A stretch of DNA of 64,000 nt from Gammaproteobacteria bacterium. Its GTDB lineage: Bacteria; Pseudomonadota; Gammaproteobacteria; Steroidobacterales; Rariloculaceae. The position numbers and the translations under genes were made by a program. Where the stretch lies: contig JAJEGN010000021.1 of the NCBI GenBank assembly GCA_022819855.1, positions 1-64,000 on the forward strand. Reading direction: 5' to 3'. This document shows, piece by piece, positions 10,763-53,084 of the stretch. Below the pieces are notes generated by a model. That model saw only the letters and a list, made by a program, of their open reading frames with translations, ran no database searches and was not told the DNA's origin. The first letter of the stretch is position 1, and the number at the start of each line of letters is the position of its first letter.

Positions 10763-12118
10763 TCAATGGATCGGCGGGTGGTCCGTCCAGGCCACTTGCC
10801 ACCAGTTGCCGCGAGTCGCTGCGTCACGGGCCGCGTCGTTGATCCACAGGTCGCCGACGGCTGCGATCATGTCGCCCCGATAGATCAGCGGAACCCGGCC
10901 GCGCATCCAGGGCACGATCCCGGCTTCCTGAAACAGGCTCTTGAGCGGCCGGCTCCGACCGCGGTTCAAGGGCTTCAAGCGCTCGCCGCCGCGGCGAAAG
11001 CGCACTTCCAGTCCGGCCCGAACCCAGGCATCGGGAAGGCCGGGGCCGTCACCCGGCGCGAGAGCGAGCCGCCCCTCGGCTCCCTCCCACGGCTCACCCG
11101 GAGCGAGCTGCGCGGCTCCAGAGCGCGGCTGCAACGGCGCCAGAGGCGCGATCAGGTACAGTCGATCGCGATAGACGCGCGCTTCGGCGCCGGGCCAGGT
11201 CACCAAGGTACGGGCGTCGGGCCGCGTCACCGTCAGGCTCCGCCTGAGTTCCTCGAGTTGGGTTGCGCTCGGGACCGGCAAACCGCGCCTGCGGATCGCA
11301 AAACGAAGCGCATTGCGCTGCCGGGCCGGCACGAGCATCCGCAGCCGCTCGCGATCGATGCTGGCCGCGGCCGCATCCTGCCCGAGATCGACAGTCGCGA
11401 GTTCTTCGAGCAACCCGTCCGCCTCGCGCATATTTCCCGCGAGCCGAGCGGCCGTGATGCTGACGGCAGGCCAACGCTCCTTAAGGCGCGGCACGATCTC
11501 GGCACGCAAGAAGTTCCGATCATGAATCGGGTCGGCGTTGCCGGGATCTTCGAGCCAATCGAGTCCCCAGCGTTCGGCCTGCTCGAGAATCTGCTCGCGT
11601 GAGAAACCAAGCAAAGGCCGCCCGACGCTGACTCCGGCCAATCGGCGAAGCGGCGCGATGGCGCCCAGTCCAGTGACGCCGGTACCGCGCAGCATGCGCA
11701 GCAGGAGCGTTTCGAGCTGGTCGTCGGCATGATGAGCGGTCAGCAGGATCTCATCGGGTGCAAGCAACTCGCCCAGCGCAGCATAACGGGCTTGCCGGGC
11801 CGCCGCTTCAAAGCCCAGACCGGAACTCGTATCGACGCTGACGCGCTTGCTGCGGAACTCGACGCCAAGCGCGGCAGCGGCCCGTCGACAGTCGTCCGCC
11901 CAGTCCCCCGAGGCGGGGTGCGTCGCGTGGTCGATGTGGAGCGCCGCGAGCCGCGGCGACATGCCGAGCCGGACGAGCGAGGTCAGCAGGACAGTCGAAT
12001 CGACCCCGCCGCTGAATGCCACCGCCCAGCGCGGCGCGGCCTCATCGTCCGGCACGAGCGCGGCCAGCTTGTCCTGCAGCTCGTTGAGAAACGACTCCTG
12101 TGGCTGGCTGCCTCCCAT
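10763..12118 (-). CDS. tilS: tRNA(Ile)-lysidine synthetase
   Basis: Adds lysine to C34 of the tRNA-Ile that carries a CAU anticodon, changing its identity from Met to Ile; essential. The 451-residue protein has the PP-loop motif FSGGVDSTVLL near residue 35 and HHADDQLETLLLRMLRGTG. TilS substrate-binding and C-terminal domains follow (GERLKPLNRGRSRPLKSLFQEAGIVPWMRGRVPLIY). It lies downstream of accA, as is usual, but a 237-bp gap holding a hairpin element separates the two genes. Confidence 0.95.
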   Translation of the reverse strand: MGGSQPQESFLNELQDKLAALVPDDEAAPRWAVAFSGGVDSTVLLTSLVRLGMSPRLAALHIDHATHPASGDWADDCRRAAAALGVEFRSKRVSVDTSSGLGFEAAARQARYAALGELLAPDEILLTAHHADDQLETLLLRMLRGTGVTGLGAIAPLRRLAGVSVGRPLLGFSREQILEQAERWGLDWLEDPGNADPIHDRNFLRAEIVPRLKERWPAVSITAARLAGNMREADGLLEELATVDLGQDAAAASIDRERLRMLVPARQRNALRFAIRRRGLPVPSATQLEELRRSLTVTRPDARTLVTWPGAEARVYRDRLYLIAPLAPLQPRSGAAQLAPGEPWEGAEGRLALAPGDGPGLPDAWVRAGLEVRFRRGGERLKPLNRGRSRPLKSLFQEAGIVPWMRGRVPLIYRGDMIAAVGDLWINDAARDAATRGNWWQVAWTDHPPIH

Positions 12119-12169
12119 CTCTCTTGTCCCAAAGCGGGCGCAGTCTCCCCGGCTACCGCAAACGCAAGG

Positions 12170-12275
12170 GGAGGTGCACTACCGGTCGCTTGAAACCCTC
12201 GCGCGCAGGGATGCGCGCGCGGAGCCTACATGGATGTATTCACGGCGTGTTTCAAGCGACCGGTAGTGCGCCTCC
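12170..12275. repeat. Long inverted-repeat hairpin element between accA and tilS
   Basis: Arms at 12170-12196 and 12249-12275 are 27 bp each and complementary at 26 positions; the remaining pair would be G-U in plus-strand RNA. The 52-base middle contains two further small hairpins. One is CGCGCGCA-GGGA-TGCGCGCG (12200-12219), and the other is TACA-TGGA-TGTA (12227-12238). A related 20-bp unit, CGGYAGTGCGCCTCCCCGCC, occurs at 12261-12280 and again at 12308-12327. It is not a protein gene. It may be a dispersed intergenic repeat or a structured RNA. Confidence 0.75.
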
Positions 12276-12355
12276 CCGCCCATTGCCACAAAGGCCTTCC
12301 CGTTACCCGGCAGTGCGCCTCCCCGCCAACCAGCGCAGCGGCTTGCCATTGGAGC

Positions 12356-13315
12356 TCAGCCTTCCTTGTAGATGCCGAACCCGAAGAGCTTCTTCCGCCG
12401 GGCCGCGATCAATTCCTCGCTCGGCAGGGGCTGCAGTTCGGCCAGCGCCTGCAACAGCGCGTTCCTGACCGCTTCGCCCATTGCCGCAGGATCGCGGTGC
12501 GCGCCGCCGAGAGGTTCGGCGATGACTTCGTCCACGAGGCCGAGCTTGAGCAGCCGTTCCGCCGTGATTCCCAGAGCTTCCGCCGCGGCCTCCGCCTTGT
12601 CGGCGCTGCGCCAGAGAATCGACGCGCAGCCTTCCGGCGAGATCACCGAATAGATGCTGTATTGCAGCATGAGCACGCGATCGGCGACGCCAATGGCCAG
12701 CGCGCCGCCCGAGCCGCCTTCGCCGGTCACGAGGCTCACGATCGGCGTCCTCAGGCACGCCATCGTGAGCAGGTTGCGCGCGATCGCCTCGCTCTGGCCA
12801 CGTTCTTCGGCGCCGACGCCCGGATAGGCTCCGGCGGTATCGATCAACGTCACCACCGGAAGCCGGAATCGTTCGGCCAGGCGCATCAGGCGCTGCGCCT
12901 TGCGATAACCCTCCGGCCGGGCCATGCCGTAGTTGCGCATGACTCTTTCCCTGGTGTCGCGGCCCTTCTGCTGACCGATCACGACAACCGGCTGACCCTG
13001 CAGGCGCGCAAGACCGGCAACGATCGATGGATCGTCGGCGTACATCCGGTCTCCGTGAAGTTCCTGAAAGTCGGTGAAACAGCGGGCGATGTAGTCGAGC
13101 GCGTACGGCCGCTGCGGGTGGCGCGCAAGCTGTGCGATCTGCCACGCGCTCAGATTCGAGAAGATGCTGCGGGTCAGCGATTCGCTGCGCTTCCTGAGCC
13201 GTTCGATCTCCTCGCTGATGTTGACTTCGGAGTCGTCCGCGACGAACTTGAGCTCGTCGATCCGCGCTTCGAGCTCGGCGATCGGCTGCTCAAATCCAAG
13301 ATATTTCAGATCCAT
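12356..13315 (-). CDS. accA: Acetyl-CoA carboxylase carboxyltransferase, alpha subunit
   Basis: With AccD, transfers the carboxyl group from carboxybiotin to acetyl-CoA, giving malonyl-CoA for fatty acid synthesis. The 319-residue length matches E. coli AccA. It has the N-terminal helical region ([18 protein letters not shown]), and the crotonase-like core with [58 protein letters not shown] and [12 protein letters not shown]. It follows dnaE in the conserved cluster with a 149-bp gap. Confidence 0.97.
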
Positions 13316-43195: not shown

Positions 43196-44941
43196 GTGAC
43201 GACGCAACTCGAACCCCTCCAAGACTGGGTCGCCGAAATCGCCGAGCTGACCCGGCCCGACAACATCCACTGGTGCTCCGGCAGCGCGCAGGAGTACCGG
43301 CAACTCATAGAGCAGATGCTCGGCGACGGCACGCTGCTCGAACTCAACCAGCAGCACTATCCCGGCTGCTATCTGCACCGTTCGGACCCGACCGACGTCG
43401 CGCGCGTCGAGCATCTGACCTTCGTGTGCACGCAGGACCAGGAAGACGCAGGTCCGAACAACAACTGGCAGCCGCCTGAAGAAGCGAAACGCACCATGCA
43501 GGCGTGTTTCGACGGCTGCATGCGCGGGCGCACGATGTACGTGATCCCCTACTGCATGGGGCCGATCGACTCTCCATACGCGCGCTGCGGCGTCGAGATC
43601 ACGGACAGCCCATACGTTGTCGCCAACATGTACCTGATGACTCGCATGGGCGATGCCGCGCTTGCGCGCATCGAGCGCGACGGCAACTTCGTCAAGGGCC
43701 TGCACTCGACGGGCGAACTCGACCCGGAACGCCGCTACATCGTGCATTTCCCCGAAGAGCTCACGATCATGAGCTACGGTTCGGGCTACGGCGGCAACGC
43801 GCTGCTCGGCAAGAAGTGCCATGCACTTCGAATCGCGAGCTACCAGGCCCGCTCGGAAGGCTGGCTTGCCGAACACATGCTGATCGTCGGCATCCAGAAC
43901 CCGGAGGGCGAAACGCACTATCTCGCCTGCGCGTTCCCGTCCGCCTGCGGCAAGACCAACCTCGCGATGCTGATTCCCCCCGAAGGTTATGAGGGCTGGA
44001 AGGTCTGGACGCTCGGCGACGACATTGCCTGGATGCATCTGGATTCGACGGGCCAGCTTCGCGCGATCAATCCGGAAGCGGGCTACTTCGGAGTCGTGCC
44101 CGGCACGAACCGCAAGACCAATCGCAACGCTTACGACATGATCGAAGCGGACACGATTTTCACGAATGTCGGAGTCACGGCCGACAACCAGCCATGGTGG
44201 GAAGGCAAGGAAACCGGCGAACCCGTGCTTGACTGGGTCGGCAAGCCGTTCGAACAGGCCAACGGCCCGGCCGCCCATCCGAATTCGAGGTTCACGGTCT
44301 CGGCGAAACAGAACCCCTGTTACTCGGAACTGGCCGATTCGCCGGATGGCGTGCCGATCTCGGCGGTCGTCTTCGGCGGCCGACGCAGCGAACTCGCACC
44401 GCTCGTCTATCAGGCCAGGGACTGGGCGCACGGCGTCCTGATCGGCGCGGGCGTCGCGTCGGAAACCACGGCCGCGGCCATCGGGCAGGTTGGCGTCGTG
44501 CGGCGCGACCCGATGGCCATGAAACCGTTCTGCGGTTACAACTACGGCGACTACTGGGCCCACTGGCTCAGTTTCGCCAGCCGCTCCGACCGCCTGCCCG
44601 GCATCTTTCACGTCAACTGGTTCAGGCGTGACGGCGACGGCAATTTCCTGTGGCCGGGCTTCGGCGAGAACCTGCGCGTGCTGCGCTGGATCATCGAGCG
44701 TTGCGAGGACCGTGTCGGCGCCGACGAAACGCCGATTGGCTACCTGCCCCGTCCGGGCGATCTCGATGTCAGCGGGATCGACGTGTCCGAAGACACGCTG
44801 CGGCAACTGCTGAGTGTCGATTCCGGGCAGTGGCGCGTGGAAGTCGATGAGATCGGCCAGTATCTGGCAAGCTTCGGCGACCGGCTGCCGCCGGAACTCA
44901 GCAGCGAGCACGACAGGATCCGAAGGGCGCTTGAAGCCTGA
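43196..44941 (+). CDS. pckG: Phosphoenolpyruvate carboxykinase, GTP-dependent
   Basis: Converts oxaloacetate and GTP to PEP, CO2 and GDP at the entry to gluconeogenesis. Class-defining motifs of the GTP enzyme are present: AGPNNNWQPPEEA, YVIPYCMGP, the kinase loop FPSACGKTNLAML with the active-site Cys, WTLGDDIAWM, and FCGYNYGDYWAHWL. The start is probably GTG at 43196 (581 residues), because similarity starts soon after (LQDWVAEIAELTRPDNI). An open frame extends to 43070 but has no family likeness. Many gammaproteobacteria use the unrelated ATP-type PckA instead. Confidence 0.95.
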   Translation: MTTQLEPLQDWVAEIAELTRPDNIHWCSGSAQEYRQLIEQMLGDGTLLELNQQHYPGCYLHRSDPTDVARVEHLTFVCTQDQEDAGPNNNWQPPEEAKRTMQACFDGCMRGRTMYVIPYCMGPIDSPYARCGVEITDSPYVVANMYLMTRMGDAALARIERDGNFVKGLHSTGELDPERRYIVHFPEELTIMSYGSGYGGNALLGKKCHALRIASYQARSEGWLAEHMLIVGIQNPEGETHYLACAFPSACGKTNLAMLIPPEGYEGWKVWTLGDDIAWMHLDSTGQLRAINPEAGYFGVVPGTNRKTNRNAYDMIEADTIFTNVGVTADNQPWWEGKETGEPVLDWVGKPFEQANGPAAHPNSRFTVSAKQNPCYSELADSPDGVPISAVVFGGRRSELAPLVYQARDWAHGVLIGAGVASETTAAAIGQVGVVRRDPMAMKPFCGYNYGDYWAHWLSFASRSDRLPGIFHVNWFRRDGDGNFLWPGFGENLRVLRWIIERCEDRVGADETPIGYLPRPGDLDVSGIDVSEDTLRQLLSVDSGQWRVEVDEIGQYLASFGDRLPPELSSEHDRIRRALEA

Positions 44942-45052
44942 GGAGCCCTCTGAACTGCCCGGACCGCCGCCGAGCGCCGCTGCGCGAGCGGTCGTATTCC
45001 ACGGCGCCCGGCAACCGGGTCGTTCGCAGCTTTCGGACTCGCGGCGCGTTGC

Positions 45053-46081
45053 TCAGTGAGCGGCCGTTGGCCGCGCCGGCACTTCGGCGGCGCGGCCCGA
45101 GTGGCGCAGGCCTGCCGCGGGTCCGGTCTGTTGTGCGGCAAGCAGACGCCTGCACGCCTCCAGGCCCGCCTTGCCGTCGACCAACTGGCCGAGTCCTCGC
45201 CGCCAGTGCCGCGCGCCCGGCTGGTGCGCGTACAGGCCCATGAGGTGGCGCGTCATCACGCGAAGCGGCGTGGCCGCTGCAAGCTCCGATTCCACGTACT
45301 CGAGGTAAGCCTCCGCGACAGCCGCGCGGGGTTCGTGGATTCCCTCGGCGAAGATCCGCGCGTCGAGTTCGCCCATGAGCATCGGCTCGGCATAAGCGGT
45401 TCTGCCGAGCATGATGCCGTCGACATGCGCAAGCTCCCTCAGGGCGGCCGGGACGGTATCGAGACCTCCGTTCAGGACGATTTCGAGCTCCGGGAAATCG
45501 GCTTTCAATCGATGCACGCGTGCATAGTCGAGCGGCGGAATCGTGCGGTTTTCCTTTGGACTCAAGCCGCTGAGCCACGCCTTTCGCGCATGTACGAAGA
45601 GCGACCGGCAGCCGGCGTCGACGACGTGTCGGACGAACTCGCGAAGGAACGCGTAGTCGTCGCGATCGTCGACACCGGTCCGGCACTTCACCGTGACCGG
45701 GATGCCGACGGCGCTCTGCATCGCTTCGACACAGGCGGCAACGAGCGCAGGTTCGAGCATGAGCGCCACGCCGAAGCGGCCCGCCTTGACGCGTGGACTC
45801 GGACAACCGACGTTGAGGTTGATCTCGTCGTAGCCGGCCGCTTCACCGAGGCGCGCAGCGCCGGCAAGCAGTTCAGGGTCGCTTCCGCCGAGCTGCAGGG
45901 CCACCGGGTGCTCGCTGGAATCGAAACGCAGAAACCGTTCGCTATCGCCGTGAACGAGCGCAGTGGCCGTGATCATTTCGGTGTAGACCCAGGCGTTCGG
46001 CGCGATCAAGCGCAGCAGATAACGGCAATGCCTGTCCGTGCGTTCCATCATCGGCGCGACGCAGAGCTTGTGAGGCGTCAT
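45053..46081 (-). CDS. dusA: tRNA-dihydrouridine(20/20a) synthase DusA
   Basis: FMN enzyme that reduces U20/U20a in tRNA D-loops. The 342-residue protein has LCVAPMMERTDRHCRYLLRL at the N-terminus, LQLGGSDPELLAGAARL, NLNVGCPSPRVKAGRFGVAL with the catalytic Cys, FVHARKAWLSGLSPKENR, and HLMGLYAHQPGARHWRR. The ATG at 46081 overlaps the upstream ligase stop (ATGA). The C-terminal 20 residues are Ala/Pro-rich. Confidence 0.96.
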   Translation of the reverse strand: MTPHKLCVAPMMERTDRHCRYLLRLIAPNAWVYTEMITATALVHGDSERFLRFDSSEHPVALQLGGSDPELLAGAARLGEAAGYDEINLNVGCPSPRVKAGRFGVALMLEPALVAACVEAMQSAVGIPVTVKCRTGVDDRDDYAFLREFVRHVVDAGCRSLFVHARKAWLSGLSPKENRTIPPLDYARVHRLKADFPELEIVLNGGLDTVPAALRELAHVDGIMLGRTAYAEPMLMGELDARIFAEGIHEPRAAVAEAYLEYVESELAAATPLRVMTRHLMGLYAHQPGARHWRRGLGQLVDGKAGLEACRRLLAAQQTGPAAGLRHSGRAAEVPARPTAAH

Positions 46082-47217
46082 GGCACCACACCTCTGGCCG
46101 TCTCCGCGATCAGGTGATCGACGACCGCACGGTAGGCCTCGTCGCTCGACGCGCCGTCCGCGAGCGCCTGCCCGTGAACTTCGAGCTGGCGGTGCGCACT
46201 CGTGCCCCGCGCGAGTATTTTCCGCGTATGTTCGACCTGGCTCACGCAGCCGAGCGCCTCGGCGTCCTCCCGCACCAGGTCGAGCAACTCCTCGAGCAAT
46301 TGCGGGAAGGGAATGACGCGACCGCGGCCGAAGTCTATGAGTCCCCGGTCGAAGCTGTAGCGCATCGCCCGCCAGCGATTCTGGCCGCTCAGCATGGGCG
46401 AGTATTCCCGCCACCGCTGATTGTTCAGGCGTAAACGATAGAGCAGGCGCAGGATGCAGCAGACCATCGCCGCAAGACACAGTGCATCCTCGATGTCGGT
46501 GCACACGTCCATGATCCGCGCCTCGAGCGTCGGGTAGCGGCCGCTCGGCCGGATGTCCCACCAGATCTTCGTCGCGTCCTCGATCAGACCGGCCTCGACC
46601 ATGATGCTGACGAGGCGCCGGTACTCGGCATAGCTCGAGAACCGCTCGGGAAGACCGGTCCTGGGCAGCGCGTCGAAGACCGTCAGGCGATAGGATTTCA
46701 GCCCCGTGTCCTTGCCTTCCCAGAACGGCGACGAGCACGACATCGCCAGCAGATGCGGCAGGAAATAGCTGGCCTGGTTCAGCAGGTCGATGCGCAGTTC
46801 GTCGTCCTCGACGCCGACGTGCACGTGCATGCCGCAGATCAATAGCCGCTGGGCCGTCGCCTGCATCTCCTCCGACAGTGCGTCGTATCGGGAACGTTCC
46901 GTGTGCTCCTGAACGGCCCAGTCGGCGAACGGGTGCGTCGACGCCGCGATCGGCGCGAGCCCGTGCCGGTCGGCGACCTCGATCACGGACCTGCGCAGCA
47001 CAAGGAGCGCGGCCTCGACTTCATCCAGGTTCCTGCACACGCGCGTGCCGACCTCGATCTGGGATTTCAGGAACTCCGGCGTGACCTGCTGGCCCTCCGC
47101 GAGTTCGGCGCACTGCTCGAGCATCGCATCGGGCATCCTCGCCACGAGGTCCCTGCTCTCGCGGTCGACGAGCATGTACTCCTCTTCGACGCCGATCGTG
47201 AATGACGGCTCGTTCAT
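46078..47217 (-). CDS. YbdK/GCS2-type carboxylate-amine ligase
   Basis: A 379-residue member of the glutamate-cysteine ligase type 2 superfamily. Relatives (YbdK, EgtA, plant GCL) join a carboxylate to an amine using ATP; E. coli YbdK shows only weak gamma-glutamyl-cysteine ligase activity. Features: TIGVEEEYMLVDRESRDLV, EFLKSQIEVGTRVCRN, ICGMHVHVGVED, SCSSPFWEGKDTGLKSYRL and WDIRPSGRYPTLEARIMDVC. Both ends overlap neighbours by 4 bp (ATGA), so it forms a tight unit with an N-formylglutamate amidohydrolase and dusA. The real substrate is unknown. Confidence 0.9.
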   Translation of the reverse strand: MNEPSFTIGVEEEYMLVDRESRDLVARMPDAMLEQCAELAEGQQVTPEFLKSQIEVGTRVCRNLDEVEAALLVLRRSVIEVADRHGLAPIAASTHPFADWAVQEHTERSRYDALSEEMQATAQRLLICGMHVHVGVEDDELRIDLLNQASYFLPHLLAMSCSSPFWEGKDTGLKSYRLTVFDALPRTGLPERFSSYAEYRRLVSIMVEAGLIEDATKIWWDIRPSGRYPTLEARIMDVCTDIEDALCLAAMVCCILRLLYRLRLNNQRWREYSPMLSGQNRWRAMRYSFDRGLIDFGRGRVIPFPQLLEELLDLVREDAEALGCVSQVEHTRKILARGTSAHRQLEVHGQALADGASSDEAYRAVVDHLIAETARGVVP

Positions 47218-48107
47218 TCGTCCGTCTCTCCTGCAGGCCACCGGGCCCGGCTGTATTCGATAGGGCGTTGCCTGTCGGACGGCACACGCGCTGCCGCCGT
47301 CAGTCGAGTATAGACCGCCTCCTGCTCGAGCACGGGCCGAAGCGCGTCCGCAAGCCGCGCGGCCCACTGTTCCTGGCCAACGTCGTCACGGACGAGGTCC
47401 TGGCGAATCTCGATGCCGGCGTGCGCGAGACCGAGCGGCTCAGCATGATGATCGATCGTGAAATCGGCCGGATGACGGCCCGAGTACGGTTCGTTGTCGG
47501 CCACGACGATATCCGGATCCTCCCTGAGCGCGCGCATCAGGGGCAGCGGCAGCCGCGGGTCCCTGTCCCAGAGCACGCCGACGTGGCAGGGCCGCTCGAC
47601 GCCGTTCGCACGGGGCGTGAAACTGTGGATGGCGATGAATACCGGCGTCTGCTCCGCGTTCGTTCCGGCGTCGATCCGCTGCCTGATCGTGCGGTGATAG
47701 GGGTGATATACGTCGCGGGCCCTCGCCCCCCTGGCCTCCATGCCGAGACCGATGTTGCCGGGCACGAGTACCCCGTCGCTGATCTCGGCAAACGCGCCGG
47801 CATCGTGCAAGGACCGATTCAGATCGACGACGAGGCGCGAATAGCCCGCGAGCACCGCATCCGCATCGAACCAGCGCGCGAGCCGGCGCGCGACGCCTGC
47901 CGCGCCGATGTCCCAGGCGATGTGGTCGGCCAGATGGTGGTCGGCGAGACCCAGCCCGTCGAGCGATCGCGGCACGCGATTCGAGGCGTGGTCGCACACG
48001 AAGATGATCGGGCGGCGACCCGATCCCTCGATCAGCTCATGAGCCGGCGGTTCGTCGTCGGCGAGAATCGAAGCGGATCGCCTTGACGAGGCTGGTTCCG
48101 GCTGCAT
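47214..48107 (-). CDS. N-formylglutamate amidohydrolase family protein
   Basis: A 297-residue zinc-peptidase-like protein of the HutG2/N-formylglutamate amidohydrolase family. Characteristic segments are IIFVCDHASNRVPRSLDGLGL, HIAWDIGAAGVARRLA, SRLVVDLNRSLHD, and IAIHSFTP. No histidine-utilisation gene is adjacent, so a Hut role is not supported; family members of this type are often found with GCS2-type ligases and may hydrolyse other N-acyl or amide bonds. It heads a three-gene overlapping operon. Confidence 0.86.
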   Translation of the reverse strand: MQPEPASSRRSASILADDEPPAHELIEGSGRRPIIFVCDHASNRVPRSLDGLGLADHHLADHIAWDIGAAGVARRLARWFDADAVLAGYSRLVVDLNRSLHDAGAFAEISDGVLVPGNIGLGMEARGARARDVYHPYHRTIRQRIDAGTNAEQTPVFIAIHSFTPRANGVERPCHVGVLWDRDPRLPLPLMRALREDPDIVVADNEPYSGRHPADFTIDHHAEPLGLAHAGIEIRQDLVRDDVGQEQWAARLADALRPVLEQEAVYTRLTAAARVPSDRQRPIEYSRARWPAGETDE

Positions 48108-48206
48108 CCGTAGTCAGGTCTGGAATCGAACGGCCGACGATTCTGACACAATCGCCCGTGGAGGTCTCTCGCTCTTCGTTGCGACGTCAGTCGGCGCAAC
48201 GGCGCG

Positions 48207-49751
48207 CTACGGCTCGCAAGCCGCCTGTTCTGCGGCGTCGTTCAAGGGAACGATACCGTCGAGGTAATCGCCGAAACGCTCCGCCGACAGGCCGAAGGGG
48301 TCGAACACACCGCACACCCTGGGCGCCACGCCGTCCAATGCCTCGCAGTTCCCGTCGCTCAACGATTCGTCAAGCAGCTCGGACAGCAGAACGGCCCGGC
48401 CGTCGATCCAGGCTGCCAGGATGTCCTCGTGCGTGGCGGTCAGTACCGCATCGTAAGGATCTCCGCCCGCGTACCTCACAAGCATCAGATCGGCCGCAAG
48501 CCCCGGCTCGATCGCGCCGAACCGGTCTTCCAGGCCCAGTGCATAGGCGCCGTTGGCCGTCGCCATGCGCCACAGCGCTTCGCCCGACAACGCCACTTCA
48601 GCGTCTTCGGCCACCCTCCGCGCACACAAGGCCTCCTCGCGCATGTTGAACGAACCGCTCGGCGACCAGTCCGTCGACAGCGCGATCCGTACGCCGTGCT
48701 CCAGTGCGCCCGCGATGTCCACGGTCTCTCCGTACAGCGCGAGATTGGAGCGCGGCGACCACACCAGCGTGACATCGAACTGGCGCATCGCCGCGTAGTC
48801 CTCGCGGTCCGTTGCCACGCCGTGAACCAGCGCGTAGCGTCGGTCGCGCCGCTGCGCTCGTTCGAGATAACGCGCTACCTCCGCCCTCGCCGCGCAGCTC
48901 GAGGGCCTGCCTTCGCCGACATGCGCAACGTATGCCATGAACGGCAGCTCGTCCTGCGCAGGCGGGAACCGGTGGACCGGACCGCCGGCGCACTCCTGGT
49001 CGAGATCCTCGACCACCCGAAAGGAGAACGGAAACGTCGTCACGTCCGCTTCGGCCTCGTAGAGGATCGGGTCGCCGTCGAGGACGTGCCGGTTGATGTT
49101 GCGAATCACGCCGGGAACGCCGCCGGTCCCGGCGATGGCGGTCGCGCCGCCGAGCAGGTGGCGCAACTCCATGGCGATGAGTATCGCGTTCGATTCCGGA
49201 TCGTCGGCGTCGTGGTAGTGCGGCTCGGGCAACGGCAACGGCATCGTTCCTCCGACTCCGAGCCGCCATTCGTCGCGGTGCGCATAACCCGGATTCAGGT
49301 TCGGATCGGGAAACGCGTGACTGTAGGCAGGGTGCTCGTGTGCATTGACGAATCCCGGTGAAACCACGGCCCTGCCCCGGCAATCCAGGACAGCCGCATC
49401 GGGATACGCCTCGCGCAGGGCGTCGAAGTCGGCCACGGCGCCGATCTGGCCGTTGAAACGGATATGCACGCCGTGGTCCGGCCTGTGTCCGTCCACCAGC
49501 AGCAGATCGGCGCCGACGATCAGTCCCGGAATGCGATCGCCTGTCGCGCCGGCCGGCGTCAGTTCACAGTACACGGCGTTCGCCGCCTGGGCATCGGCAA
49601 CTGCATGGGGAAGGGGCACGGTGCACGCACCGAGCAACAGCGACGGAAGAAGTCCAGCCGGGGGACAACGGGAAACGCGCCGGCCGGTCTGCCGCTCGGC
49701 GGCGGACATCGTCGGGACCGTCATGGCGGAAATGCCGTGTTCGCCGGTCAT
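48207..49751 (-). CDS. Probable lipoprotein amidohydrolase (metal-dependent deaminase/hydrolase)
   Basis: A member of the amidohydrolase superfamily with the N-terminal HxH metal motif (SPGFVNAHEHPAYSHAFPD). A later His region (YALVHGVATDRED) and the catalytic Asp segment (RIALSTDWSPSGSFNMREEA) are also present. A second small beta-sandwich part (DRFGAIEPGLAADLMLV) completes the fold. The N-terminus has a hydrophobic stretch ending in a lipobox-like LLGAC, so it probably works outside the cytoplasm as a lipoprotein. Starts at 49751, 49724 or 49709 are all possible. It is divergent from a TonB receptor, suggesting the two handle the same compound. Confidence 0.78.
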   Translation of the reverse strand: MTGEHGISAMTVPTMSAAERQTGRRVSRCPPAGLLPSLLLGACTVPLPHAVADAQAANAVYCELTPAGATGDRIPGLIVGADLLLVDGHRPDHGVHIRFNGQIGAVADFDALREAYPDAAVLDCRGRAVVSPGFVNAHEHPAYSHAFPDPNLNPGYAHRDEWRLGVGGTMPLPLPEPHYHDADDPESNAILIAMELRHLLGGATAIAGTGGVPGVIRNINRHVLDGDPILYEAEADVTTFPFSFRVVEDLDQECAGGPVHRFPPAQDELPFMAYVAHVGEGRPSSCAARAEVARYLERAQRRDRRYALVHGVATDREDYAAMRQFDVTLVWSPRSNLALYGETVDIAGALEHGVRIALSTDWSPSGSFNMREEALCARRVAEDAEVALSGEALWRMATANGAYALGLEDRFGAIEPGLAADLMLVRYAGGDPYDAVLTATHEDILAAWIDGRAVLLSELLDESLSDGNCEALDGVAPRVCGVFDPFGLSAERFGDYLDGIVPLNDAAEQAACEP

Positions 49752-49811
49752 GGGCGCGCCAGCATAACGGCCGCAACTGCCCACGCCAACCAGATAAGGA
49801 GCGTGAGTCGG

Positions 49812-52800
49812 ATGTTGACAGGCGTGTACACTGCGTGCCCGCGCAAGCTCATGGTCGATTCAGGCTATATCGTGTCCCGACAGCTCGTCGCAGCCCTGCG
49901 TTCTGTCGTGTTGCTTGGCGCCGTTCTGACCGGCGCCGCCGGGCATGCGAACACGTCCGCCAGCCTGAGCGGCATGGTGACCGATCCGCGCGGCCAGGGC
50001 GTGAGCGACGCCCAGGTGTCGATCGTTCATCAGCCTTCCGGCACCGCGGCGCAGGCGCTGACCGCGGCCAGCGGTGCGTTCTTCCAGGGCGGCCTGCGGG
50101 TCGGCGGACCGTTCGAGATCGGCGTCCGGGCTGCGGGTTTTCGCGAACTGCGAATGACCGACGTGATGCTGCGCCCGGGGCCCCAGACGCCCCTGGCGAT
50201 CGTTCTTGAACCGGTGGCGGTCGACGAAGTCGTGGTCACCGCAGCCGCCGCCCCGCTGCGGGATCTGAACAACGGCGTGGGCTCCGCATACAGCGCCGCC
50301 GACATGGACGGGCAGCCCGGCATTCATCGCGACGTCATCCGCACGCTTCTGAGAGACCCGCTCGCGCAGTCGGACGGTCAGGGGCATCTCGCGGTCGGCG
50401 GCGCCAACCCCCGTTTCAACGGCCTGGCCATCGACGGTTCCCTGCAGCAGGACGACTTCGGGCTCGGCGCCAATACCTACGCCACGGAACGTTCGCCGAT
50501 CAACCTCGACGCCGTGGAGTCGGTCTCGCTGGTGGCGTCGGACTACTCGGCCGCGGCGGCGGGCTTCACCGGCGGGCTGGTCCAGATCACGACCCGGTCG
50601 GGCACGAACGAGTGGGACGGCTCCGCGTTCTTCTATCGTCACGGCGACGGGTTGGTGGGCGAACGCCATGACGGCGGCACGTTCTCGCCGGCGCCCTTCG
50701 AGGAGACCGAGGCCGGTGTGTCCATCGGCGGTCCGATCGTCAGGGACCGATTGTTCGTCTTCCTTTCCTATGACGAATTCGACTCCGCCTCGCCGGTGGA
50801 TTTCGCCGCTTACGACGCCGCCAACGGCATCCGGCCAGGCCTCTTCGACGCGCTTGGCGGAGTGCTGCGGGACACCTACGGCTACGACCCCCTGGGGCGC
50901 CCGAACGCCAACACGCCGACCCGTTCCGAACGGGCACTGGCGAAGCTCGACTGGAACCTGTCCGACGCGCATCGGCTCGCCTTCACCTGGCAGGCCAGCG
51001 AGGAAATCGACACGCGGGTGCTCGCCAGCGGGTTCGAGTCCGCCTGGTACGACGTTCCGGTGGACCTGGATGCGTTGTCGGTACAGGCCTGGTCCGACTG
51101 GACGGATCGGCTGGCCACGGGTCTCCGGGTCAACCGCAAGACGTTCCGGCGGGGACAGATCTGTCGAGCGGGCCGGGAGGTCGGCGCGCTGGAACTCGAC
51201 CTCAGGCCGGAGCAACTGGCGGGCACGGCCCTGGACGGCCTGCTGACGGACCGGGTCACGCTCACCGCCGGCTGCGACCGTTTCCGTCACGCCAACGAAT
51301 ACGACGACGAGCGCCTGCAGTTGTACGCCGATGTGGACTACTTCCTTGGCGACCACATCGTCAAGGCCGGCTTCGAAGCCGAACGCTTCGAGCTATACAA
51401 CCTGTTCGTTCCGGGCTCCCGCGGCCGCTTCGTGTTCAACGGCTTCGACGCGGTCCGCAACGGCGTGGCCCGGGTGGATTACGTCAACGCCGTGTCCAAC
51501 GATCCCCGGGACGCCGCGGCCGCCTGGGGCTACCGCAAGCGCGCCTTCTTCATCCAGGATACCTGGGCGGCCACTCCGGATCTCGAGCTGACCGCCGGAC
51601 TGCGCTACGAGCGTTTCACGCAGGACGACGCACCGGCATACAGCGCGCCAATCTTCGCGGCCTACGGCGTGCGCACCGACGCCAATCTGGACGGCGCAGA
51701 CCTGTGGATGCCCAGACTCGGAATACGTTACACGGGGCTCGAGCGCACCGTGATATCAGGCGGCGTGGGGCTCTTCGCCGGCGGCGACCCGAAGGTGTGG
51801 ACCTCCAATGCCTTCCAGCCGCCCGTGGTGTTCGCGCGTCTTCGGGAGGCCGCCGACGTCTCGCCCTTCGCGGTGCCGCCCGCGCTCCTGCAGCAGGTGG
51901 CCGCCGGTACCGCGCTGCCGGTGGACGCGATCGCCGAGGATTTCGAGACCCCGTCGGACTGGAAGGCATCGATTCGCATGGAGCGGGAGTTCGACCTGCC
52001 CCGTCTGGGACGCGACTTCATGGCCACGATCCAGTACCTGCATACCCGCACGAACCGGAGCTTCCTGTGGCGGAACCTCGCCCATACCCGCCTCGCGGCC
52101 GCGCAGCCCACCGGCCAGTCCCCGGACGGCCGTATCATCTACGCGGATCTCGACAACCTGGGCCTGCTCAACCTGACCACGCTCGGTAACCACGGGGGCG
52201 GCCGCGGCCAGGTCTTCTCTGCCGCCGTTTCGAAAGCCTGGGATTTCGGGTTCGACTTCTCGGCGAGCTACGCGTGGCAGGACGTGGAAGCGGTCGCCGA
52301 AGGCGTCTCGGCGCGCGGAATATCCAACTGGCGCAGCCTCACCGTGGCGGACCGCAATTCCCCGGACGCCCGCCGTTCGCCCCACCAGACGACGCACTCC
52401 TGGAAGTTCAACTTCGGTTACGAACGTGCCGTCGGCGGCCTTGACGTGCGGCTGAACGTCTTCGGCAGAATCTTCACCGGCGACCTCTTCACCTATACCT
52501 TCGATGTCGACCGCGGCAACGCCCTGTTCGGACGCGCCGGGGCCGGCGAGAGCCCCTACGACGCCAACCCGCTCTACGTTCCGGCGCACAACGATGCCGC
52601 CGTCGTCTACGCATCCACTTTCGATCAAGATGGATTTCGGGATTACATCCGGGGCACGCCGGCCGGAATCCACGCGCCATACTCGGAAGACAGCGGCTGG
52701 AACCGGATCTGGGATCTGCGCCTTCGCATCGAACTGCCGGGGTTGCGCGGCCTCACCCGATTCTTCGGCGACAGCCGCGCGAGCGTGGTGCTCGACATCG

Positions 52801-53084
52801 AGAACTTTCCCAACCTTCTCAACGACCGCTGGGGACGCTTCGATTCCGGTCCGGGTTTCGGGCAGGCCGCCATCGTCAGAGGCGACCTGGTGCGCGCTGT
52901 GGACGTGGCGAACATGGGGGTCGACACGGCACCGGCGTTGATCGGCGATGCGCCCCGCGGCGCCTGCCGGATCCCAAACGACTGCCTGTACCGTTTCAAC
53001 CGCTTCGACGGCGAACCCAGGGCGATCACAAGTCCGTCGCGATCCGTCTACCGGATCAGGCTGGGCGTGCGGCTGGATTTCTAG
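49812..53084 (+). CDS. Oar-like TonB-dependent outer membrane receptor
   Basis: A 1090-residue outer membrane receptor. Order of parts: signal peptide (hydrophobic VVLLGAVLTGAAGHA), a carboxypeptidase-regulatory-like beta-sandwich (SLSGMVTDPRGQGVSDAQVS; about 45-140), a linker with VDEVVVTAAA, a plug domain (HLAVGGANPRFNGLAIDGS; FTGGLVQITTRSGTNEWDG), then a long barrel ending in RLGVRLDF with a terminal Phe. The ATG at 49812 is preceded by AAGGAG. The layout matches Oar/OmpA-related TonB receptors that import large or peptide-like substrates. The facing amidohydrolase is the only clue to its ligand. Confidence 0.88.
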   Translation: MLTGVYTACPRKLMVDSGYIVSRQLVAALRSVVLLGAVLTGAAGHANTSASLSGMVTDPRGQGVSDAQVSIVHQPSGTAAQALTAASGAFFQGGLRVGGPFEIGVRAAGFRELRMTDVMLRPGPQTPLAIVLEPVAVDEVVVTAAAAPLRDLNNGVGSAYSAADMDGQPGIHRDVIRTLLRDPLAQSDGQGHLAVGGANPRFNGLAIDGSLQQDDFGLGANTYATERSPINLDAVESVSLVASDYSAAAAGFTGGLVQITTRSGTNEWDGSAFFYRHGDGLVGERHDGGTFSPAPFEETEAGVSIGGPIVRDRLFVFLSYDEFDSASPVDFAAYDAANGIRPGLFDALGGVLRDTYGYDPLGRPNANTPTRSERALAKLDWNLSDAHRLAFTWQASEEIDTRVLASGFESAWYDVPVDLDALSVQAWSDWTDRLATGLRVNRKTFRRGQICRAGREVGALELDLRPEQLAGTALDGLLTDRVTLTAGCDRFRHANEYDDERLQLYADVDYFLGDHIVKAGFEAERFELYNLFVPGSRGRFVFNGFDAVRNGVARVDYVNAVSNDPRDAAAAWGYRKRAFFIQDTWAATPDLELTAGLRYERFTQDDAPAYSAPIFAAYGVRTDANLDGADLWMPRLGIRYTGLERTVISGGVGLFAGGDPKVWTSNAFQPPVVFARLREAADVSPFAVPPALLQQVAAGTALPVDAIAEDFETPSDWKASIRMEREFDLPRLGRDFMATIQYLHTRTNRSFLWRNLAHTRLAAAQPTGQSPDGRIIYADLDNLGLLNLTTLGNHGGGRGQVFSAAVSKAWDFGFDFSASYAWQDVEAVAEGVSARGISNWRSLTVADRNSPDARRSPHQTTHSWKFNFGYERAVGGLDVRLNVFGRIFTGDLFTYTFDVDRGNALFGRAGAGESPYDANPLYVPAHNDAAVVYASTFDQDGFRDYIRGTPAGIHAPYSEDSGWNRIWDLRLRIELPGLRGLTRFFGDSRASVVLDIENFPNLLNDRWGRFDSGPGFGQAAIVRGDLVRAVDVANMGVDTAPALIGDAPRGACRIPNDCLYRFNRFDGEPRAITSPSRSVYRIRLGVRLDF

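What the first reader, a model, noticed from the sequence alone, without database searches (positions are those of the whole stretch)
46078..48107. Three-gene overlapping operon: N-formylglutamate amidohydrolase, YbdK/GCS2 ligase, dusA
Both junctions are 4-bp ATGA overlaps, suggesting stoichiometric production. A ligase that makes amide bonds and an amidohydrolase that breaks them form a plausible small-molecule or peptide-tailoring pair. No histidine degradation gene is near, so the HutG label is probably wrong. The pathway these two enzymes serve is not described as far as I know.
Basis: partly seen in the sequence, partly recalled or inferred. Interest (0 to 1): 0.55.

Follow-up and report, generated by a model that had tools for sequence, protein, structure and literature searches.

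The report
Amide-making and amide-breaking enzyme pair
Two neighbouring bacterial genes, one predicted to build an amide bond onto glutamate and one predicted to cut such bonds, form a widely conserved two-gene unit that is probably mislabelled as histidine breakdown and whose small-molecule substrate is still unknown.

Summary
FGase (PF05013, 47214-48107 -), GCS2/YbdK ligase (PF04107, 46078-47217 -) and dusA (45053-46081 -) abut with two ATGA overlaps. The quoted range leaves dusA out.

"HutG" is wrong here: 22 bits against a 279-bit cut-off, no urocanase in the genome, no hut genes in any of 101 neighbourhoods searched, and HutG lies across the longest branch of the tree with different motif residues.

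FGase followed by GCS2 is a conserved unit: 62 of 80 relatives, always tight. dusA is a local bystander (7 of 80).

Nearer FGase relatives sit in clusters with glutamine-synthetase-like ligases; the literature proposes γ-glutamylglycine amidohydrolase for this family there (PMC6529630, PMC9397018; PMC10132767 by gene order). I infer that GCS2 makes a γ-glutamyl amide or dipeptide and FGase hydrolyses it. Some genomes without a detected FGase carry another Zn-amidohydrolase beside GCS2.

The substrate is unknown and no activity is shown. Known families in a little-described combination.

The parts
47214..48107 (-). FGase-family (PF05013) amidohydrolase, 297 aa; proposed γ-glutamyl-amide hydrolase, not HutG
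   Evidence: Pfam 139 bits; 22 of 279 bits against HutG model; HSFTP motif at residues 161-165; AF2 model pLDDT 88.7 matching 2ODF
46078..47217 (-). GCS2 / YbdK-family carboxylate-amine ligase (NF010039), 379 aa; proposed γ-glutamyl ligase
   Evidence: Pfam 193 bits; NF010039 505 vs 371 bits; YbdK 1R8G/1TT4 homologue
47214..47217 (-). ATGA overlap of FGase stop and GCS2 start
   Evidence: sequence
46078..46081 (-). ATGA overlap of GCS2 stop and dusA start
   Evidence: sequence
45053..46081 (-). dusA, tRNA dihydrouridine synthase; co-oriented bystander
   Evidence: Pfam 257 bits; NF008774 458 vs 269 bits; follows GCS2 in 7 of 80 relatives

Best explanation
The functional unit is the two-gene pair FGase-GCS2. 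Proposed mechanism: GCS2 uses ATP to activate the side-chain carboxylate of glutamate as an acyl phosphate and couples it to an amine or amino acid X, giving γ-glutamyl-X. The FGase-family enzyme hydrolyses a γ-glutamyl amide back to glutamate plus X, or plus a version of X changed meanwhile by enzymes encoded elsewhere. Together they are the make and break ends of a γ-glutamylation route, analogous to amine-catabolism clusters in which a glutamine-synthetase-like ligase is the 'make' enzyme and an FGase-family γ-glutamylglycine amidohydrolase is the proposed 'break' enzyme. Shown here: the genes, overlaps, families, conserved pairing, distance from HutG, and shared group and motif with FGases of such clusters. 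Inferred: γ-glutamyl as the acyl group, the direction of each reaction, that both act on one metabolite, and any intermediate steps. Unknown: the identity of X. dusA is a passenger.
For: (1) FGase directly upstream of GCS2, same strand, in 62 of 80 loci, all tight. (2) A second, divergent pairing in the reverse order: GCS2-FGase next to each other in 8 of 21 FGase neighbourhoods examined in the class, 7 of them with C39-like peptidase and RLAN/RimK ATP-grasp genes. (3) FGase also neighbours the other kind of γ-glutamyl ligase, PF00120: RpiR-FGase-TRAP-GS-like-ALDH-Fe-ADH in L050 and L051, the gene order printed for Phaeobacter MED193, where that position is named γ-glutamylglycine amidohydrolase and is more abundant with phosphatidylethanolamine (PMC10132767); PF05013 is proposed for this step in S. 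coelicolor and C. salexigens (PMC6529630; PMC9397018); two annotated plasmid loci have GS-family + permease + FGase. (4) Tree of 95 FGases: pair-type, GS-linked and solo in one 76-row group (SH-aLRT 85); all 12 HutG apart on a 2.71 branch; HSFTP and NxPY versus HSIRS in HutG. (5) Partner replacement: of 10 genomes with GCS2 but no FGase detected, 3 have an AstE/AspA-like gene and 1 an M20 gene next to GCS2, and 1 an M20 gene one gene away. (6) Outside FGase itself the closest solved folds listed are poly-γ-glutamate hydrolases 3A9L and 5ONJ, Z 13.2. (7) The own genome has a single PF00120 gene, so no extra GS-type γ-glutamyl-amine ligase is evident.
Against: No enzyme of either subfamily is assayed here; in the passages I saw, the published hydrolase role rests on context and proteomics. 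FGase occurs without GCS2 (same-order G017 keeps FGase and dusA but no GCS2 was found), and in the class 10 of 21 FGase neighbourhoods have no GCS2 beside FGase. GCS2 occurs without a detected FGase (10 of 18 unpaired-locus genomes, drafts). In the phylum at most 15 of 22 genomes with close GCS2 have it away from FGase. No ALDH, ADH or transporter for a γ-glutamylation route was seen beside the window pair, and a ligase and hydrolase with nothing between would be futile unless regulated. Poly-γ-glutamate hydrolases stand only about 1 Z above muramoyl-alanine amidases. The FGase-GCS2 distance correlation (r 0.89) is also expected from shared descent. The AspA-like swaps are three similar loci, perhaps one event, and in one the gene is split into two ORFs. 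Two papers place FGase in oxidant-stress contexts (PMC9751292; PMC8315932), which my reading does not explain.
Confidence: 0.57

Rival explanations
1. The FGase is an ordinary HutG-type N-formylglutamate deformylase and its place beside GCS2 is incidental.
For: Same superfamily and shared catalytic-looking residues H40, R91, D95, N97, R98, H161, E233.
Against: 22 of 279 bits, no HutG-model match in the own genome, no urocanase, HutG clade far apart, no HutU/HutH/HutI in the window or 100 neighbourhoods, pairing in 62 of 80 loci.
Confidence: 0.04
2. Glutathione-type thiol metabolism: GCS2 is a γ-glutamylcysteine ligase and FGase recycles γ-glutamyl-cysteine or glutathione derivatives, perhaps under oxidant stress.
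For: The YbdK paper title cited in PMC2588565 claims γ-glutamyl:cysteine ligase activity; FGase is listed near chlorite dismutase, together with a γ-glutamylcyclotransferase, in PMC9751292.
Against: The own genome and the three other class genomes with a close GCS2 all have PF04262 gshA, so the first glutathione step is covered. gshB was not searched.
Confidence: 0.1
3. The pair makes and trims short poly-γ-glutamate or γ-glutamyl-glutamate, for example as an osmolyte or side chain.
For: Poly-γ-glutamate hydrolases are the closest solved folds outside FGase (3A9L, 5ONJ, Z 13.2).
Against: Margin over other amidases is about 1 Z; no polymer gene was identified near the window pair; fold does not set specificity.
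Confidence: 0.1
4. Protein or peptide tagging: GCS2 attaches, and FGase removes, a glutamyl group on a macromolecule, as PafA and Dop do with Pup.
For: Dop and PafA appear among GCS2 structural neighbours; the divergent cassette includes RimK-like and peptidase proteins.
Against: Closer structural neighbours are YbdK and glutamate-cysteine ligases; no conserved small protein stood out among clustered neighbours, although ORFs under 80 aa were left out of that clustering.
Confidence: 0.06
5. The two enzymes serve different reactions and share only regulation or ancestral order.
For: Each occurs without the other; G017 keeps FGase and dusA without GCS2.
Against: Adjacency in two orders in distant subfamilies, and other Zn-amidohydrolases beside GCS2 where FGase was not detected.
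Confidence: 0.13

Closest known systems
Ethanolamine γ-glutamylation clusters (Phaeobacter MED193 RpiR-GGAH-EtoVWX-ETAGA-GAADDH-GETADH; S. coelicolor GlnA4/SCO1615)
   Same: FGase-type hydrolase encoded with a γ-glutamyl-amide ligase; the window FGase falls in one 76-row group with FGases of clusters with that gene order and shares motif residues with them
   Different: Ligase is GCS2/YbdK-type, not PF00120; no transporter, ADH or ALDH beside it; two genes only
YbdK-family carboxylate-amine ligase (E. coli YbdK, PDB 1R8G; Salmonella 1TT4)
   Same: TIGR02050 above cut-off; same fold
   Different: 23-25% identity in the structural alignment; subgroup NF010039; most genomes with only distant YbdK-like hits are not in the FGase list
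C39 peptidase - RLAN/RimK - GCS2 - FGase cassette (RLAN = PF14401)
   Same: Same two families adjacent
   Different: Reverse order, distant sequences (FGase 27-30% identical to the window's in five compared; GCS2 22-26 bits in the three detected), two extra genes
HutG N-formylglutamate deformylase (TIGR02017)
   Same: Same superfamily and catalytic-looking residues
   Different: 22 of 279 bits, different motif, no urocanase in the genome
Atu2144 (PDB 2ODF)
   Same: Closest solved FGase, 32% identity, Z 36.1
   Different: Deposited as a hypothetical protein; no function given

Membership tests
HutG N-formylglutamate deformylase | Scores above TIGR02017 curated cut-off | tested here: not met
   22.1 vs 278.75 bits; no match at E 0.001 in own genome
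HutG N-formylglutamate deformylase | Histidine-degradation pathway in the genome | tested here: not met
   No urocanase PF01175 in own genome, 97.7% complete; hutH and hutI were searched only in the window and fetched neighbourhoods, none found
HutG N-formylglutamate deformylase | HSIRS residues of HutG at 161-165 | tested here: not met
   Window HSFTP; HutG I163 12 of 12, R164 11 of 12, S165 12 of 12. That this motif defines HutG is my observation on 12 rows
FGase superfamily PF05013 | Pfam gathering score and fold | tested here: met
   139 vs 28.9 bits; 2ODF Z 36.1, 2Q7S Z 23.6
γ-glutamylglycine amidohydrolase (GGAH) of ethanolamine clusters | Same FGase subgroup | tested here: inconclusive
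   76-row group with 5 GS-context rows, SH-aLRT 85; shared residues. The published Phaeobacter and Streptomyces proteins were not in the tree; L050/L051 stand in by gene order
γ-glutamylglycine amidohydrolase (GGAH) of ethanolamine clusters | Gene cluster with PF00120 ligase, ALDH, Fe-ADH and transporter | tested here: not met
   Neighbours scanned are amidohydrolase, TonB-type receptor, DegT, DusA, PEPCK, helicase; the single PF00120 gene is on another contig
γ-glutamylglycine amidohydrolase (GGAH) of ethanolamine clusters | Hydrolyses γ-glutamylglycine | not testable with these tools
   needs enzyme assay
YbdK-family carboxylate-amine ligase | TIGR02050 / NF010039 above cut-off | tested here: met
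   295 vs 176; 505 vs 371 bits
YbdK-family carboxylate-amine ligase | ATP-dependent amide formation | not testable with these tools
   needs enzyme assay
RLAN/RimK-GCS2-FGase cassette | RLAN-RimK ATP-grasp and C39-like peptidase genes adjacent | tested here: not met
   None among the 8 proteins scanned between 41079 and 54281

The most novel reading that the evidence does not exclude
FGase-GCS2 is a portable γ-glutamylation module: a GCS2-type ligase and a Zn-amidohydrolase that can be FGase, AspA-like or M20. It would reversibly cap an amine or amino acid with glutamate, as a store, a detoxification form or a signal, and be the GCS2 counterpart of the glutamine-synthetase-type amine pathways. 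The pair moves between phyla as one unit.
Probability: 0.33. Interest if true: 0.62.

Novelty: new variant of a known kind. Interest (0 to 1): 0.42.

Why it matters
Many proteins labelled N-formylglutamate amidohydrolase are probably not HutG. If the window subgroup is a γ-glutamyl-amide hydrolase, a large set of annotations would change, and the widespread, little-characterised GCS2/YbdK ligases would gain a partner that tells experimenters which products to look for.

Tried and rejected
Glutathione supply as the main role: not favoured, because gshA is present; gshB was not searched. Three-gene unit with dusA: rejected, 7 of 80 relatives. The amidohydrolase 48207-49784 as a fourth operon member: not favoured, because L062, the closest relative (90% GCS2 identity), has DegT ending just before FGase and no tblastn hit for the amidohydrolase or the TonB-type gene. 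Fusion of FGase and GCS2: two long ORFs (L102, L103) were checked and each has one recognised domain. Promoter/terminator scan 44700-50000: none found where shuffles give 0.4 and 2.2, uninformative. Viral contigs: no relative of FGase. Literature on the GCS2-FGase pair: searches gave no description in their listings; Iyer et al. 2009 on amidoligases (recalled) is not held and may mention it. Six papers were opened; only passages found by term were seen, no whole text or whole section: PMC2588565, PMC6529630, PMC9751292, PMC8315932, PMC9397018, PMC10132767. The tree carries a long-branch warning at the HutG/type-II join and was not rebuilt with the mixture model. L158 was put in the 'GS' group although its stretch shows ALDH and permease but no glutamine-synthetase gene. 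Several neighbour names (for example the PQQ-dehydrogenase-like gene, MFS, universal-stress genes) are by eye only.
Full report
On the minus strand FGase (47214-48107), GCS2 (46078-47217) and dusA (45053-46081) follow each other with ATGA overlaps at 47214-47217 and 46078-46081. The range given in the finding stops before dusA. Pfam and NCBIfam assign the families clearly: GCS2 is above the cut-off of NF010039 (505 bits, cut-off 371), while FGase scores 22 bits against the HutG model, whose cut-off is 279.

Histidine degradation is excluded as far as tested. The own genome (97.7% complete) has one PF05013 gene, no urocanase and no match to the HutG model. HutU, HutH and HutI-type proteins from true HutG neighbourhoods found nothing in the window or in the 100 neighbourhoods L042-L141, about 1.76 million bases, whereas they hit 8, 7 and 3 of the 12 HutG loci. 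In a tree of 95 FGase-family proteins all 12 HutG rows sit on one side of a branch 2.71 long (the program warns that long branches meet there). Residues differ too: HSFTP at 161-165 in the window against HSIRS in HutG, R172 against P, and NxPY at 205-208, which HutG lacks. Likely catalytic residues (H40, R91, D95, N97, R98, H161, E233) are common to both, so the protein looks like an active enzyme with another substrate. Which of them bind metal is by analogy with the carboxypeptidase-like fold and was not tested.

The real unit is FGase-GCS2. FGase lies directly upstream on the same strand in 62 of 80. All 62 junctions are tight: 23 overlap, 31 have 0-30 bp, 7 have 31-60 and 1 has 97. By record title they include Alpha- and Gammaproteobacteria, seven Bryobacterales/Terriglobia bins and one Gemmatimonadaceae bin; the FGases of these last eight form one group beside alphaproteobacterial ones, which suggests transfer of the pair, with the usual caution about metagenome bins. 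Of the 18 other loci one (L113) has only 167 bp upstream and cannot be judged. FGase is elsewhere in 8 of the 18 genomes and was not found in 10. The distances of the two proteins correlate over 63 pairs including the window (r 0.89, best of 2000 permutations 0.16), which common descent alone could also give.

Wider survey. In the class, FGase is in 22 of 143 genomes and a GCS2 match in 11 of 143. I fetched neighbourhoods for 20 of the 21 other FGase genomes (not G114). With the window that is 21: order FGase-GCS2 in 3 (window, L044, L049), a divergent GCS2 next to FGase in 8, and no GCS2 beside FGase in 10, of which L052 is cut by the contig end. Seven of the 8 also carry the C39-like peptidase and RLAN/RimK genes (L053, L054, L055, L057, L058, L059, L061; clusters, families confirmed by Pfam for L055 only; in L058 FGase was placed from its search hit). 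In the phylum, 22 of 398 genomes have a GCS2 of 425 bits or more; 21 of these 22 have an FGase match, against 99 of the other 376; at least 7 of the 22 are adjacent (the match list was cut short). This is not corrected for phylogeny.

What does the FGase do? Its relatives without GCS2 are telling. In L050 and L051 the order is RpiR regulator, FGase, TRAP transporter genes, a glutamine-synthetase-like ligase, aldehyde dehydrogenase and iron alcohol dehydrogenase (Pfam run on L051, L050 by homology). This is the order printed for the ethanolamine cluster of Phaeobacter MED193, where that position is called γ-glutamylglycine amidohydrolase and is more abundant on phosphatidylethanolamine (PMC10132767, table and legend passages; its Pfam family was not stated there). 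The role is proposed for PF05013 in S. coelicolor (SCO1615) and C. salexigens (PMC6529630; PMC9397018). Annotated plasmid loci in Klebsiella (L156) and Rhizobium (L157) also have FGase with a glutamine-synthetase-family gene and an APC permease; Pseudorhizobium (L158) has FGase, aldehyde dehydrogenase and permease only. These five FGases lie in the same 76-row group as the window protein (SH-aLRT 85). So the same hydrolase subgroup keeps company with two kinds of ligase, and glutamine synthetases are among the structural neighbours of the GCS2 model.

The hydrolase slot also appears exchangeable. In L084, L105 and L115, genomes where no FGase was found, the gene next to GCS2, on the opposite strand, is AstE/AspA-like (Pfam hit in L084 and L105; in L115 two overlapping ORFs that match L084 at 46 and 52%). 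In L102 an M20 peptidase gene is the neighbour, and in L126 one lies beyond a luciferase-like gene. These are 5 of the 10 loci without a detected FGase; they are few and may represent two events. In the other five (L087, L089, L120, L121, L138) I recognised no such gene next to GCS2, by Pfam or by eye.

Structure models agree with the families. FGase (pLDDT 88.7) matches Atu2144 2ODF (Z 36.1) and a Ralstonia FGase 2Q7S (Z 23.6); next come poly-γ-glutamate hydrolases (3A9L and 5ONJ, Z 13.2), only about 1 above peptidoglycan amidases. GCS2 (pLDDT 81.5) matches YbdK, then glutamate-cysteine ligases, then Dop/PafA and glutamine synthetases. Two GCS2 stretches (110-126 and 176-187) are modelled poorly.

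Reading. The best account is a γ-glutamyl ligase and a γ-glutamyl amide or dipeptide hydrolase that serve one route. The substrate is not known. Points against: no dehydrogenase or transporter was seen beside the pair, neither gene strictly needs the other (G017 of the same order keeps FGase and dusA without a detected GCS2), and no activity has been measured. Glutathione is an unlikely product because gshA is present in the own genome and in the other three class genomes with a close GCS2. Two papers put FGase in oxidant-stress settings: near chlorite dismutase, in a table that also lists a γ-glutamylcyclotransferase (PMC9751292), and behind a predicted BcrS sigma-factor site in Brucella (PMC8315932); I have not explained these. 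The genome has a second GCS2 on another contig and a single PF00120 gene.

dusA is a bystander: directly after GCS2 in 7 of 80 relatives. The amidohydrolase and TonB-type receptor genes upstream have no match in L062, where DegT precedes FGase.

Novelty. All families are known and the hydrolase role is proposed in print for another ligase type. I found no text on the GCS2-FGase pair, but a paper likely to mention it is not held. I therefore call it a new variant of a known kind.

Noticed in passing
L053, L054, L055, L057, L058, L059, L061: Conserved cassette C39-like peptidase - RLAN/RimK ATP-grasp - divergent GCS2 - divergent FGase in the same class; its product is unknown.
   Followed up: partly
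L084:8939-9955, L105:8932-9975, L115:8887-9911: AstE/AspA-like gene divergent from GCS2 where FGase was not found, with NAD synthetase and phosphofructokinase genes nearby.
   Followed up: partly
L095:4555-9615, L100:1706-6786: Cyanophycin-synthetase-like gene (Pfam in L095, by eye in L100) and an S51-peptidase gene directly upstream of GCS2.
   Followed up: no
21 of 62 paired loci, e.g. L066:5528-9046 and 11295-13217: A gene of a GGDEF-containing cluster ends within 400 bp upstream of FGase; in 14 of 80 loci another starts within 400 bp after GCS2 (domains confirmed in L066). c-di-GMP control or mere synteny is untested.
   Followed up: partly
48207-53084: Amidohydrolase with a signal-like N-terminus (by eye) and a TonB-type receptor sit between DegT and FGase; not found in L062.
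   Followed up: partly
G000:C6:4030-5148 (L003, L037), outside the window: Second YbdK-type GCS2, 41% identical to the first, beside what looks by eye like a PQQ-dependent dehydrogenase.
   Followed up: no
L156 (Klebsiella plasmid): Glutamine-synthetase-family, APC permease, RpiR, FGase and isochorismatase genes on a plasmid typed as conjugative; 45 Klebsiella plasmid records hold an FGase match.
   Followed up: no
L060:9218-12435: FGase and GCS2 beside an arginase-family gene, without the RimK and C39 clusters.
   Followed up: no
PMC9751292 table, passages only: FGase and a γ-glutamylcyclotransferase, with close Bradyrhizobium-type accession numbers, are listed near chlorite dismutase genes; a possible stress link.
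   Followed up: no
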